Position numbers and translations under genes: made by a program
Notes under the pieces: generated by a model
The model's database searches: none
Seen by the model: only the letters and a program-made list of their open reading frames with translations
Told to the model about the DNA's origin: nothing
In this document: one piece after another, positions 46,689-63,960 of the stretch
How the letters are laid out: each line of letters begins with the position of its first letter
Numbering within the stretch: the stretch's first letter is position 1
DNA from: Halomonas sp. CH40
Lineage (GTDB): Bacteria; Pseudomonadota; Gammaproteobacteria; Pseudomonadales; Halomonadaceae
DNA length: 64,000 bases
NCBI GenBank assembly: GCA_041875495.1
Contig: CP112982.1
Location: 3,603,965-3,667,964 of the forward strand
Direction: 5' to 3'

Positions 46689-47171
46689 GACATCTCATCC
46701 TGAATTTTGGGCGGCATTGAATTGAACAATCTATTGCCGCTGTGATCTGGCCGGACAGTATAAACCTCCTGTGGGTAACCGTCAGGTTTTTCCACATGGT
46801 AAATGACAGAGCTGACTGCTTTTAGTAATAATATAAAGATTAAATAAAAGAACTTCTGTAAATGCTGTTACTACTAGTGTGGATAAAAACTGTGGTTAAG
46901 TGATATTTATCTATTAATTTCAGATGCTTATAATGTTGACAAAGATGTTTATGAGTTGCGTAGGGAGCGGGTATAAACCGTCATGAACCTGTGGATGAAA
47001 TAGCGACTTACCCACAGGGCAAGTTGACCCCTGCTTATCCACCGACCCGTACATGGGTTGTGAGCCTAGCTGTGAACAAGTGGCTATTCTAGCGGCGCTA
47101 CCCTGCAAAGGCTGGCATAGAGGCGTATACGTAGGTTGCCCAGCAGCTGTAAAAATTAATTATCCACAGGC
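46689..47171. other. DnaA-box-rich non-coding region upstream of mnmG (oriC-like)
   Basis: About 480 bp without a gene. Perfect DnaA boxes (TTATCCACA) lie at 46878-46886 (minus) and 47160-47168 (plus). Boxes with a single difference from it lie at 46770-46778 (TTACCCACA, minus), 46788-46796 (TTTTCCACA, plus, within the TTWTNCACA consensus), 46891-46899 (TTAACCACA, minus), 46990-46998 (TCATCCACA, minus), 47008-47016 (TTACCCACA, plus) and 47035-47043 (TTATCCACC, plus). AT-rich tracts at 46818-46860 and 46900-46945 could unwind. In E. coli oriC lies beside mnmG; in Pseudomonas-type genomes it lies beside dnaA. Function here is not proven. Confidence 0.7.
46757..46785 (-). promoter_or_regulatory. 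Probable mnmG promoter containing a DnaA box in its spacer
   Basis: On the minus strand, CTGACG (46780-46785), a 17-bp spacer and TATACT (46757-46762), 69 bp upstream of the mnmG ATG. The spacer contains TTACCCACA (46770-46778), so DnaA bound there would block RNA polymerase. Confidence 0.5.
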
Positions 47172-47199
47172 AAAAAAAAGCCTGTCACAGGGACAGGCT
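47172..47199 (-). terminator. Terminator downstream of the amino-acid ABC transporter operon
   Basis: Hairpin AGCCTGTC-ACAGG-GACAGGCT (47179-47199) followed on the minus strand by eight T's. It ends the transporter operon and insulates the DnaA-box region beside it. Confidence 0.88.
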
Positions 47200-47214
47200 A
47201 TAAATTAGCGGGTT

Positions 47215-47277
47215 TTGACGTGCCTTTTTGGTGCTTAAAACACCTCTCTGGCAGCTTGTTTACTATAGGCACGTCAA
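47215..47277. repeat. Inverted repeat spanning the end of the ABC ATPase gene
   Basis: TTGACGTGCC (47215-47224) and GGCACGTCAA (47268-47277) are perfect inverted 10-mers separated by 43 bp; the right arm covers the stop codon of the ATPase gene. Purpose unknown; it might fold the 3' end of the mRNA ahead of the terminator. Confidence 0.6.
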
Positions 47278-48032
47278 TGTTTCAGTACCCTGGCCAGGAA
47301 GGATTGGGTACGTTCGTGCTGAGGTTTATCAAACAATTGTTGCGGTGGCCCCTGCTCGGTAATTTCACCCTGATGGATGTAGATAACCCGGTCAGCGACT
47401 TCACGGGCAAAGCCCATTTCATGAGTGACAATCACCATGGTCATGCCTTCCTTGGCCAGTTCACGCATGGCATCCAGCACTTCACCAATCATTTCCGGGT
47501 CAAGGGCCGAGGTTGGCTCATCAAACAGCATCAGACGCGGTTCCATGGCCAGTGCACGGGCCAGGGCCACACGCTGCTGCTGGCCGCCTGAGAGCTGGGT
47601 AGGCGATTTCTTGGCCTGGTCGGCAATACCCACCCGTTCAAGCAGGCGCATGGCCGTTTCCTCGGCGTCTTCACGGTTCCAGCCGCGTACTTTCATGGGT
47701 GCCAGGGTGATGTTGTCGAGAACGCTAAGGTGCGGAAAGAGGTTGAACTGCTGGAATACCATGCCGACTTCAGTGCGGATCTGTTGCAGCGCCTTGGTGC
47801 TTTTACCAAAGGGCATGAGGTCATGACCATCAACAGTGAGGTTGCCGGACTGAAACTCTTCCAGGCCATTGATACAGCGGATCAGGGTGGACTTACCCGA
47901 ACCGCTGGCGCCGATCACAACGACGACTTCACCTGGCACGATTTCCAGGTTGATATCTTTGAGAACATGCAGGCTGCCAAAGTGCTTATTCAACTTCTGC
48001 ATGGTGACGATAGGCTGCGTCGAATCATTCAT
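47274..48032 (-). CDS. Polar amino-acid ABC transporter ATP-binding protein
   Basis: A 252-residue ATPase of the GlnQ/HisP class. Walker A GASGSGKST, Q-loop VFQQFNLFPHLSVLDNI, signature LSGGQQQR, Walker B LMLFDEPTSALDPE and the switch histidine VTHEMGFAREVAD are all present. It is the last gene of a three-gene operon (binding protein, permease, ATPase); the permease stop is 10 bp upstream. Substrate probably glutamine, glutamate or another polar amino acid. Confidence 0.94.
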   Translation of the reverse strand: MNDSTQPIVTMQKLNKHFGSLHVLKDINLEIVPGEVVVVIGASGSGKSTLIRCINGLEEFQSGNLTVDGHDLMPFGKSTKALQQIRTEVGMVFQQFNLFPHLSVLDNITLAPMKVRGWNREDAEETAMRLLERVGIADQAKKSPTQLSGGQQQRVALARALAMEPRLMLFDEPTSALDPEMIGEVLDAMRELAKEGMTMVIVTHEMGFAREVADRVIYIHQGEITEQGPPQQLFDKPQHERTQSFLARVLKH

Positions 48033-48042
48033 GTCTGCGTCC

Positions 48043-48714
48043 TTATTGTCCTGCCAGGCCTCTGCGCTCCAGTTGGCGCAGCAGGATTGAAAGCGACCAG
48101 GTGATAATCAGGTAAAGCATGGCCACCATCAGATAGACCTCCATGGCGGTGAAGGTAGTCGCGATGTAGATCTGCCCCTGGCGGACCAGTTCGCCTACCC
48201 CAATCACCGAAAACAGTGAGGTGTCCTTGATGCTGATGATGCCCTGATTGCCTAGAGAGGGAATCATGCGCCGAAAGGCCTGGGGCCAGATGACATAACG
48301 AAACGCCTGGGTTCTTGACAGCCCAAGGGAGAGCGATGCCTCGCGCTGGCCGCGTTCCATGGATTGAACGCCACCGCGCACGATCTCGGAGATATAGGCC
48401 CCTGAGTTGACCGCAATGGCCGCTATACCTGCTGTCAGAGCGTTGATCGGACTACCCAGCAGTTGCGGCAGGCCATAAAAGATAAACAGCACCTGCACCA
48501 GGATTGGAGTGCCGCGAAATACTTCGATATACACGATGGCAGGCCAGCGCAGCCAGCGGATAGGGCTGATACGCAGGAGACCGAAAAAGATACCGATAAA
48601 GAAACCGAATGCCAAACCACCGAAAGAAATCAGTAGTGTCCATGGAATCCCTGGCAACAGATGGGGAATTGAACCGAAGGCGGCCCCCCAATCAAACTGA
48701 AATGTACTATCCAC
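48043..48714 (-). CDS. Polar amino-acid ABC transporter permease
   Basis: A 223-residue inner-membrane subunit of the HisM/GlnP family. It has TWTLxISFxG-type LLPGIPWTLLISFGGLAFGF, then VYIEVFRGTPILVQVLFIFYGLP and the EAA loop REASLSLGLSRTQAFRYVIWPQAFRRMIPSLGNQ. The start is GTG at 48714, preceded by CAGGAGA; the longer ATG frame to 48777 has no Shine-Dalgarno and overlaps a hairpin region. Confidence 0.92.
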   Translation of the reverse strand: MDSTFQFDWGAAFGSIPHLLPGIPWTLLISFGGLAFGFFIGIFFGLLRISPIRWLRWPAIVYIEVFRGTPILVQVLFIFYGLPQLLGSPINALTAGIAAIAVNSGAYISEIVRGGVQSMERGQREASLSLGLSRTQAFRYVIWPQAFRRMIPSLGNQGIISIKDTSLFSVIGVGELVRQGQIYIATTFTAMEVYLMVAMLYLIITWSLSILLRQLERRGLAGQ

Positions 48715-48763
48715 GCGCGATCTCCTGAAAAGTGACCCTGTAAAAAGAGACCCTGAAATGACG

Positions 48764-62877: not shown

Positions 62878-62903
62878 CGAGGTCGAGCGGCGCTATATAA
62901 TCG

Positions 62904-63317
62904 TCAAGCGTCATGCTGAGTGCTTGCTGGTGATGCCAATTTTGTGCACTCATGCTGTCTCGCTTCACGCTGCAGCCGTTTCCACATGCCATGTAGCTGA
63001 CGATGTAACGTATCGTTGTCAAGATCATGTACGCCGCGCCTAGCCAGAACAACAATGTCAAGCATTGGTAACTGATGTTGGCGTAATCGTACGGATTCTC
63101 TAACGAGGCGTTTGAAACGATTGCGCTGTACGGCAAGTTTCACATTTTTTTTACTGACCACTAGCCCGAGTCGTGGATGACCGAGCGTGTTCCAACGTGC
63201 AAGTGCCATCATGCCTTTACCGTGGACTTTCAGGTCAGCTTGTTCGAAAACGTGACTGAAATCCCCAGCATTAAGCAAACGTAAACACCGGGGATAGCCT
63301 TGACGGAGCACACGCAA
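62904..63317 (-). CDS. rnpA: Ribonuclease P protein component
   Basis: A ~137-residue basic protein that assists the catalytic RNA of RNase P in tRNA 5' maturation. LGLVVSKKNVKLAVQRNRFKRLVRESVR contains the family RNR motif. The C-terminal ~25 residues (after LQREA) go beyond the usual family length of ~120. The start is uncertain: TTG at 63317 or GTG at 63311, neither with a good Shine-Dalgarno sequence; it is likely translated after rpmH, whose stop is 7 bp upstream. Confidence 0.93.
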   Translation of the reverse strand: MRVLRQGYPRCLRLLNAGDFSHVFEQADLKVHGKGMMALARWNTLGHPRLGLVVSKKNVKLAVQRNRFKRLVRESVRLRQHQLPMLDIVVLARRGVHDLDNDTLHRQLHGMWKRLQREARQHECTKLASPASTQHDA

Positions 63318-63324
63318 TCCGGAT

Positions 63325-63459
63325 TCAGGCGCTCAGACGCTTGCGGCCTTTGGCACGACGGCGCGTGATAATGGCGCGGCCACTTTTGGTTGCCATGCGT
63401 GCGCGGAAGCCATGCGTACGCTTGCGCTTGAGAACGCTAGGTTGAAAGGTGCGTTTCAT
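63325..63459 (-). CDS. rpmH: 50S ribosomal protein L34
   Basis: A 44-residue, highly basic ribosomal protein: MKRTFQPSVLKRKRTHGFRA at the N-terminus and ending RRRAKGRKRLSA. The family length is 44-46. It is the first gene of rpmH-rnpA-yidC-mnmE and is preceded by a good promoter. Confidence 0.98.
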   Translation of the reverse strand: MKRTFQPSVLKRKRTHGFRARMATKSGRAIITRRRAKGRKRLSA

Positions 63460-63556
63460 AACTCGTTATTCCCACGTGGTTTTAGGACGGAACGTCGATT
63501 TCAGGAACCCGATCTAGTCAATGACCATCTCGGGTGCTGCTAATTCAAGACCGGAA

Positions 63557-63585
63557 ATTGTAGAGCTTTAGCTCGCCAGGTGCAA
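63557..63585 (-). promoter_or_regulatory. Sigma-70 promoter of rpmH-rnpA
   Basis: On the minus strand, TTGCAC (63580-63585), a 17-bp spacer and TACAAT (63557-63562), about 98 bp upstream of the rpmH ATG. The spacer contains a small inverted repeat GAGC-TTTA-GCTC. Confidence 0.6.
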
Positions 63586-63660
63586 TTTTTTTGTCTGAAG
63601 AACCCAGTGATGTCGCATTGGGCAGTCCAGTGATGGGTCGTTCAATGCCACTCAGGGTTA

Positions 63661-63960
63661 TTGCCAGGCCTTATCTACTATTATTTATATCTTTCTAAAT
63701 ATTGTTATTAATAGTGGGGATAGAAATTGTGGATAACACCATATAAGTGATTATATTCAGATAATTGGAATGATAAAAAAACTGTGGATAAGCAGTGCTT
63801 AAGCGGTAGTTTAGCTGTGACGAAAGCGTGGATAAATGAAGGTTTAGCATTATTTCAGGTTTTTTCCCCAGCTCATCCAAAGGGCTCAAGCCATAGCAGT
63901 AAGAAGGTTATCCACAGAAGCATCGGAGGTGATACTTGTGTGGATAACTTGGTTCTGGGG
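63661..63960. other. oriC: Chromosomal replication origin region (oriC, rpmH-dnaA type)
   Basis: The 540 bp from rpmH to the window edge hold no gene. Four perfect DnaA boxes (TTATCCACA) lie at 63728-63736, 63783-63791 and 63939-63947 (minus) and 63908-63916 (plus); a one-mismatch box is at 63827-63835. An AT-rich tract at 63669-63714 (many TTATTT/ATATC/AATATT runs) is a likely unwinding element. In Pseudomonas and related groups oriC lies exactly here, with dnaA starting just after; dnaA itself is outside the window. A TACAAT at 63963-63968 could be a -10 element for dnaA. Confidence 0.88.

What the first reader, a model, noticed from the sequence alone, without database searches (positions are those of the whole stretch)
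46757..63947. Two separate oriC-like DnaA-box clusters about 17 kb apart
The region upstream of mnmG (46.76-47.17 kb) has two perfect DnaA boxes, six more differing from TTATCCACA at one position, and AT-rich tracts. The region after rpmH (63.7-63.95 kb) has four perfect boxes, one near-perfect box and an AT-rich tract. E. coli uses the mnmG side, Pseudomonas-type genomes the dnaA side; here both look equipped. The mnmG cluster could be a second or ancestral origin, a DnaA titration site, or a regulatory cluster controlling the two flanking operons.
Basis: partly seen in the sequence, partly recalled or inferred. Interest (0 to 1): 0.72.

Follow-up and report, generated by a model that had tools for sequence, protein, structure and literature searches.

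The report
E. coli-style origin plus origin-like twin
This salt-loving bacterium carries two look-alike DNA replication start sites 17 kb apart; strand-composition evidence suggests the one next to the mnmG gene has done the work, while the copy next to dnaA is a related site that is not recognisable in a good part of its relatives.

Summary

Both sites hold one 46-bp core (35/46 identical): DnaA box, 4 bp, second box, 1 bp, then DnaA-trio-like units running into an AT-rich tract. A profile from mnmG cores of other genera finds just these two places in 464 kb (42.5 and 25.7 bits; next 6.9).

GC3 skew corrected for gene strand switches at 44.5 kb (2-lnL interval 34.5-49.0); the dnaA site is 11.7 lnL units below the best fit, the mnmG site 1.3. 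Of 21 family genomes compared, 17 favour mnmG and 4 dnaA, one of these clearly (G022).

Best reading: the mnmG cluster is the main oriC, in the E. coli position; the dnaA-side cluster is an origin-like relative serving dnaA/rpmH control or as a weak backup. Paired gammaproteobacterial origins are known (P. aeruginosa). New here: evidence on which side is used, the shared core, and a convergent DnaA-box pair kept inside mnmE.

The parts
46770..47168 (.). mnmG-side DnaA-box cluster: 2 perfect boxes and 6 with one mismatch; proposed main oriC
   Evidence: at least 4 boxes within 700 bp upstream of mnmG in 60 of 61 family genomes
46854..46899 (-). mnmG-side core: box, 4 bp, box, 1 bp, DnaA-trio-like units
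   Evidence: 42.5 bits with a profile that leaves the own genus out
46814..46863 (.). AT-rich tract (80% AT) at the trio side of the mnmG core; proposed unwinding element
44784..46688 (-). mnmG (gidA)
   Evidence: TIGR00136 above cut-off
47179..47199 (-). terminator-like hairpin with T run, at the end of the ABC-transporter gene 47274-48032
   Evidence: consensus match; 1 found, shuffles mean 0.5
63728..63947 (.). dnaA-side DnaA-box cluster: 4 perfect boxes and 1 with one mismatch, in the gap between divergent rpmH and dnaA
   Evidence: at least 3 boxes in 57 of 60 family genomes
63691..63736 (-). dnaA-side core, same architecture as the mnmG core (35 of 46 positions identical)
   Evidence: 25.7 bits with the mnmG-core profile, next place in 464 kb 6.9
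63662..63711 (.). AT-rich tract (76% AT) at the trio side of the dnaA-side core
63325..63459 (-). rpmH
   Evidence: TIGR01030 above cut-off; dnaA begins at the base after the window (C1:1)
59874..59932 (.). convergent perfect DnaA-box pair TTATCCACA-N41-TGTGGATAA inside mnmE (59609-60979, -)
54194..54231 (.). convergent perfect DnaA-box pair with 20-bp gap inside a thiD-like gene
   Evidence: not seen at this place in the relatives scanned

Best explanation
The mnmG-side cluster is the chromosome's main replication origin (oriC), in the position used by E. coli. DnaA would bind the tandem boxes of the core, extend along the trio-like repeat on one strand and open the adjacent AT-rich tract (inferred from the basal unwinding system of B. 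subtilis). Forks leave in both directions, so the 17 kb up to dnaA belongs to the right arm. The dnaA-side cluster carries a relative of the same core; it most likely binds DnaA in the rpmH-dnaA promoter gap (autoregulation and/or titration) and may fire weakly or as a backup. Shown: boxes, shared core, conservation, skew. Inferred: DnaA binding, unwinding, firing, division of labour.
For: Cumulative GC skew minimum at 45.3 kb of 464 kb examined. GC3 change-point corrected for gene strand 44.5 kb, 2-lnL interval 34.5-49.0 kb; lnL -1.3 at 47 kb, -11.7 at 64 kb. In 16 of 20 relatives compared the likelihood is also higher at mnmG, including G024, G037 and G017 in which the two genes lie 173, 103 and 46 kb apart. 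Right-arm share of the stretch between the sites 1.03 [0.37, 1.64] here; interval excludes 0 in 15 of 21 genomes. The core is near-universal at mnmG (59 of 61, in-sample) but found at dnaA in 34 of 60. Leave-genus-out, the mnmG core is the best place in 17 of 18 assembled regions. Core-like sequence with the same box-to-AT-trio spacing upstream of gidA/mnmG in Kosakonia and Vibrio.
Against: Skew records history, not present firing. G022 clearly favours dnaA (lnL -24.7 at mnmG); G004, G054 and G002 do so by less than 1 unit. TA3 skew does not decide (best 67.5 kb; -1.8 at 47 kb, -1.4 at 64 kb) and leading-strand gene fraction is equal for both (0.606, 0.604). In several relatives the best change-point is 10 kb or more from mnmG (e.g. 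G013, G015, G037, G024). The dnaA side has more perfect boxes (mean 2.2 against 0.9). The stretch between the sites holds inserted genes whose skew could date from elsewhere. GATC sites are few and no IHF site with <=1 mismatch was found at either gap.
Confidence: 0.78

Rival explanations
1. Both sites fire: two origins 17 kb apart, equally or by condition.
For: Both have boxes, the shared core and an AT-rich tract. The skew interval for this genome alone (0.37-1.64) includes a half share.
Against: An equal share (0.5) lies below the interval in 9 of 21 genomes (G021, G014, G010, G011, G049, G060, G001, G003, G024). The dnaA-side core is not recognisable in 26 of 60 genomes.
Confidence: 0.13
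2. Pseudomonas-type: the dnaA side is the origin and the mnmG cluster is vestigial or a titration site.
For: More perfect boxes at dnaA. G022 has its skew switch at dnaA. P. aeruginosa oriC is described as adjacent to dnaA and dnaN (PMC3642087, passage).
Against: lnL -11.7 at dnaA in this genome; 17 of 21 genomes favour mnmG. A vestige would not be expected to keep its core in 59 of 61 genomes while the dnaA-side core is found in 34 of 60.
Confidence: 0.06
3. The mnmG cluster only regulates mnmG transcription or titrates DnaA; it never opens.
For: It lies in the gap upstream of mnmG; in B. subtilis DnaA appears to repress the trmE-noc operon (PMC4447404, passage).
Against: Does not account for the skew switch at this place in most relatives compared, nor for the conserved box-spacer-trio-AT order.
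Confidence: 0.03

Closest known systems
E. coli-type oriC (gidA-mioC gap)
   Same: Position upstream of mnmG/gidA; box followed after 14 bp by a TAATAA/TAGTAG-like run and AT-rich DNA, as in the Kosakonia and Vibrio loci; skew switch there.
   Different: No mioC beside it but an ABC-transporter gene; one GATC in the gap; no IHF site with <=1 mismatch; dnaA 17 kb away, not 40 kb (distance in E. coli recalled).
Paired origins of Pseudomonas aeruginosa
   Same: Two autonomously replicating elements are described (PMC4403523, passage), and Pseudomonas loci here have box clusters upstream of both genes.
   Different: There oriC is described as adjacent to dnaA and dnaN (PMC3642087, passage); that the second element lies near gidA and is dispensable is recalled, since Jiang 2006 and Yee & Smith 1990 are not held. 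Here skew favours the mnmG side.
Basal unwinding system (BUS): tandem boxes, spacer, DnaA-trios
   Same: Tandem boxes, the trio-proximal units TAG/TAA, AT-rich tract; 14 bp between the outer box and the trios (published peak 10-13 bp; PMC8287927, passage).
   Different: Two copies of the arrangement 17 kb apart; many units are CAA/CAG-like and not canonical trios, so a strict three-trio search finds few.
B. subtilis DnaA-binding regions outside oriC, including upstream of trmE
   Same: DnaA boxes near the origin at the mnmE/trmE gene (PMC4447404, passage).
   Different: There upstream of trmE with four sites; here a convergent pair inside the coding sequence.

Membership tests
E. coli-type oriC at gidA | DnaA-box cluster with AT-rich tract immediately upstream of mnmG/gidA | tested here: met
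E. coli-type oriC at gidA | Strand-composition switch at this place | tested here: met
   GC3 change-point 44.5 kb, interval 34.5-49.0 kb; TA3 skew undecided
E. coli-type oriC at gidA | Many GATC sites (Dam/SeqA) and an IHF site | tested here: not met
   one GATC in 46689-47273; no IHF consensus with <=1 mismatch in 46600-47300
E. coli-type oriC at gidA | mioC as the other neighbour | tested here: not met
   neighbour is an amino-acid-type ABC ATPase gene, 47274-48032 (matches below the curated cut-offs)
E. coli-type oriC at gidA | Initiation of replication and autonomous replication | not testable with these tools
   needs marker-frequency sequencing and plasmid tests
Basal unwinding system | Box or tandem boxes followed by DnaA-trios at about 10-13 bp | tested here: inconclusive
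   mnmG side: outer box, 14 bp, TAG TAG TAA; dnaA side: outer box, 14 bp, TAT TAA TAA, which the strict search does not accept; published spacing from PMC8287927, passage
Basal unwinding system | DnaA-dependent strand opening | not testable with these tools
   biochemistry
Pseudomonas-type paired origins | Box clusters both at rpmH-dnaA and upstream of gidA | tested here: met
   Pseudomonas loci; definition partly recalled
Pseudomonas-type paired origins | dnaA side is the working origin | tested here: not met
   by skew only: lnL -11.7 at dnaA; of 21 genomes 4 favour dnaA, one clearly

The most novel reading that the evidence does not exclude
Halomonadaceae keep two interchangeable oriC cores of common descent. 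The mnmG one is in charge, the dnaA one is a live reserve that can take over (as the skew of G022 suggests it did), and the conserved DnaA-box pair inside mnmE helps coordinate the two within an 18-kb DnaA-controlled domain.
Probability: 0.2. Interest if true: 0.75.

Novelty: new variant of a known kind. Interest (0 to 1): 0.5.

Why it matters
E. coli and Pseudomonas differ in which end of the old rpmH-mnmG block starts replication (recalled for E. coli; PMC3642087 passage for P. aeruginosa), and how an origin moves is open. Here is a family in which both ends carry box clusters and often the same core, the skew mostly marks one end, one genome shows the other, and the two ends lie 5 to 173 kb apart. 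That makes origin relocation testable in culturable Halomonas. It is also a warning that a genome numbered from dnaA, as this one is, need not begin at its origin.

Tried and rejected
Coding-strand GC3 skew of mnmE and yidC as a marker of the arm: it differs in G002, G004 and G022, but mnmG shifts too, so it may reflect genome-wide composition; set aside. Leading-strand gene fraction and TA3 skew: do not decide. A strict three-trio search has hits in 13 of 61 genomes, counting both sites and some off-pattern hits, and misses the dnaA site of this genome; replaced by a template and profiles. The template was written after seeing the two sites of this genome and was used to pick the cores for the profiles, so the profiles lean towards that pattern; the dnaA-side profile uses only the 28 cores of other genera that matched it well. 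The profile includes the genomes that it scores at mnmG; one search leaves the own genus out, and there G004 fails at mnmG (3.6 bits, below two other places). One search counted boxes in the wrong flank for loci stored in contig orientation; one search corrected this, and only its counts are used (the control windows are not affected). Weak rows: G006 (430 bp of contig left) and G002 (spacer one base shorter). G018 and G030 were left out of the 21-genome comparison: G018 is rearranged and G030 lacks flanks; in G018 the skew minimum lies at mnmG. The 20 relatives for skew were chosen by me for large contigs and spread over genera, out of 60 fetched. More genomes of genus g22: only G022 is held. 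Sigma-70 and parS scans do not separate the hypotheses.

Literature: eight full-text searches (at most 20 papers listed each) showed me no paper on the place of oriC in Halomonas. The H. elongata genome paper has one sentence on GC skew, data not shown (passages). Only open-licence papers are held.
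Full report
Setting. The window is the last 64 kb of a one-contig genome of 3,667,964 bp whose base 1 is the dnaA start codon, so the rpmH-dnaA gap ends the window. The nearest named relatives among 80 loci are Halomonas and Billgrantia (MnmG 84-87% identical). Of ten proteins checked against NCBIfam, mnmG, rsmG, parB, mnmE, yidC, rpmH and dnaA pass a curated cut-off; the ParA-like, ThiD-like and amino-acid ABC ATPase names rest on matches below it.

Observation. Eight boxes in 411 bp and five in 220 bp compare with 0.11 and 0.06 expected and with maxima of 3 and 2 elsewhere in 464 kb. 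The genome has 38 perfect boxes, 11 of them between 45.6 and 63.95 kb.

Shared core. On the minus strand both sites read box, 4 bp, box, C, trio-like units, AT-rich tract; 35 of 46 positions are identical. A profile made from 54 mnmG cores of other genera scores 42.5 bits at 46854 and 25.7 at 63691; the third place in 464 kb has 6.9. A profile made from 28 dnaA-side cores of other genera (those that matched my template well, out of 60 dnaA gaps of which 5 are of the own genus) finds the same two places (44.0 and 30.8; third 11.1). The template was written from the two sites of this genome, so the second profile is partly selected. Leaving the own genus out, the mnmG gap is the best place in 17 of 18 assembled regions (not G004), and the dnaA gap is second and clear of the rest in 10 of 18, marginal in G022. 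Common descent and convergence under DnaA binding cannot be told apart by this.

Conservation. 61 family genomes in 24 genera were drawn. In the 700 bp upstream of mnmG, 60 of 61 have at least four boxes (the exception has 430 bp of contig left); upstream of dnaA 57 of 60 have at least three and 60 of 60 a perfect one, against a mean of 0.20 boxes in 5,223 control windows of 700 bp. The core beats each of 1,000 control windows in 59 of 61 genomes at mnmG (in-sample) and in 34 of 60 at dnaA. Outside the family, template scores of 21-25 of 30 occur upstream of mnmG in some Vibrio, Shewanella, Pseudoalteromonas, Kosakonia, Pectobacterium, Marinobacterium, Microbulbifer and Pseudomonas loci, others of these groups scoring 20 or less; the maximum in shuffles of the family's gaps was 20. 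Two Moraxellaceae, the Thiodiazotropha and the Chromatiales loci have no box there.

Which site is the origin. Cumulative GC skew over 464 kb has its minimum at 45,327. A regression of third-position GC skew on gene strand and side of a change-point gives 44.5 kb, 2-lnL interval 34.5-49.0 kb; lnL -1.3 at 47.0 kb and -11.7 at 64.0 kb. Third-position TA skew does not decide. The same analysis in 20 relatives gives the higher likelihood at mnmG in 16 and at dnaA in 4 (G022 by 24.7 units; G004, G054 and G002 by less than 1). Treating the skew between the sites as a mixture of left and right arm, the right-arm share is 1.03 [0.37, 1.64] here; the interval excludes 0 in 15 of 21 genomes and excludes 1 in G022, G004 and G054 (two genes lie between in G054). 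G024, with 173 kb between the genes, has its cumulative minimum 2.8 kb from mnmG, although its best change-point is 10 kb away and mnmG itself scores -8.0 against -31.3 for dnaA. A MnmG tree places G022 beside G024 (91/54) in a clade with genus g3 (99/97), so near relatives differ in side, but the clear dnaA-side case is one genome.

Neighbourhood. The mnmG gap follows the end of an ABC-transporter gene with a terminator-like hairpin; the rpmH-dnaA gap is divergent. Four perfect parS-like sites (recalled consensus) lie 3.1-6.6 kb right of the dnaA start. Between the two gaps (700 bp at each end left out) perfect boxes occur at 112 per Mb (77 in 687 kb) against 26 per Mb (45 in 1,706 kb) in the flanks, pooled over 21 genomes.

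Box pair in mnmE. TTATCCACA-N41-TGTGGATAA inside mnmE is perfect in 8 and within one mismatch per box in 14 of 23 family genomes, and in 0 of 55 rows from outside the family, one of which could not be aligned there. Under resampling of synonymous codons with each genome's own usage it arose in 0 of 4,000 draws for six of the eight genomes, about 2 for G022 and 3 for G002. TTA makes 1-18% of leucine codons in these eight. This argues for selection on the DNA, although the genomes are related. Its role is unknown; titration or DnaA recycling is a guess.

Papers, as seen. Passages: PMC8287927 (BUS), PMC4403523, PMC3642087, PMC4285127, PMC4447404, PMC8203912 (twelve boxes at the P. putida dnaA promoter, no repression by its own DnaA), PMC3187862, PMC10225481, PMC13036160; passages and one section of PMC2099444; abstract of PMC11317965 (E. 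coli DnaA prefers box pairs 2 or 3 bp apart; the core pair here is 4 bp apart).

Noticed in passing
window 59874-59932: Convergent perfect DnaA-box pair with a 41-bp gap inside mnmE; perfect in 8 of 23 family genomes and in 0 of 55 outside rows, and not expected from codon usage.
   Followed up: yes
window 54194-54231: Second convergent perfect DnaA-box pair, 20-bp gap, inside a thiD-like gene.
   Followed up: partly
about 7.3-9.2 kb from the mnmG start in G011, G049, G060, G001, G057 and G030: A further cluster of three boxes lies between the two gaps in these relatives, in one case checked inside a predicted gene (G001).
   Followed up: partly
L041:3137-6569: Four perfect parS-like sites (recalled consensus) 3.1-6.6 kb right of the dnaA start; none in the window.
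   Followed up: partly
L266-L268 (G022:C1:3580001-3640000): The one genome with its skew switch clearly at dnaA; it still has six boxes (<=1 mismatch) upstream of mnmG.
   Followed up: partly
L288-L290 (G018:C1:1-60000): dnaA and mnmG lie on the same strand with mnmG 22.5 kb downstream; the skew minimum is at mnmG and dnaA sits head-on in the left arm, as after an inversion.
   Followed up: partly
window 47274-59605: In this genome about 12 kb of genes lie between mnmG and mnmE, eight of them on the plus strand; the gap between mnmG and dnaA ranges from 5 to 173 kb in the relatives assembled.
   Followed up: no
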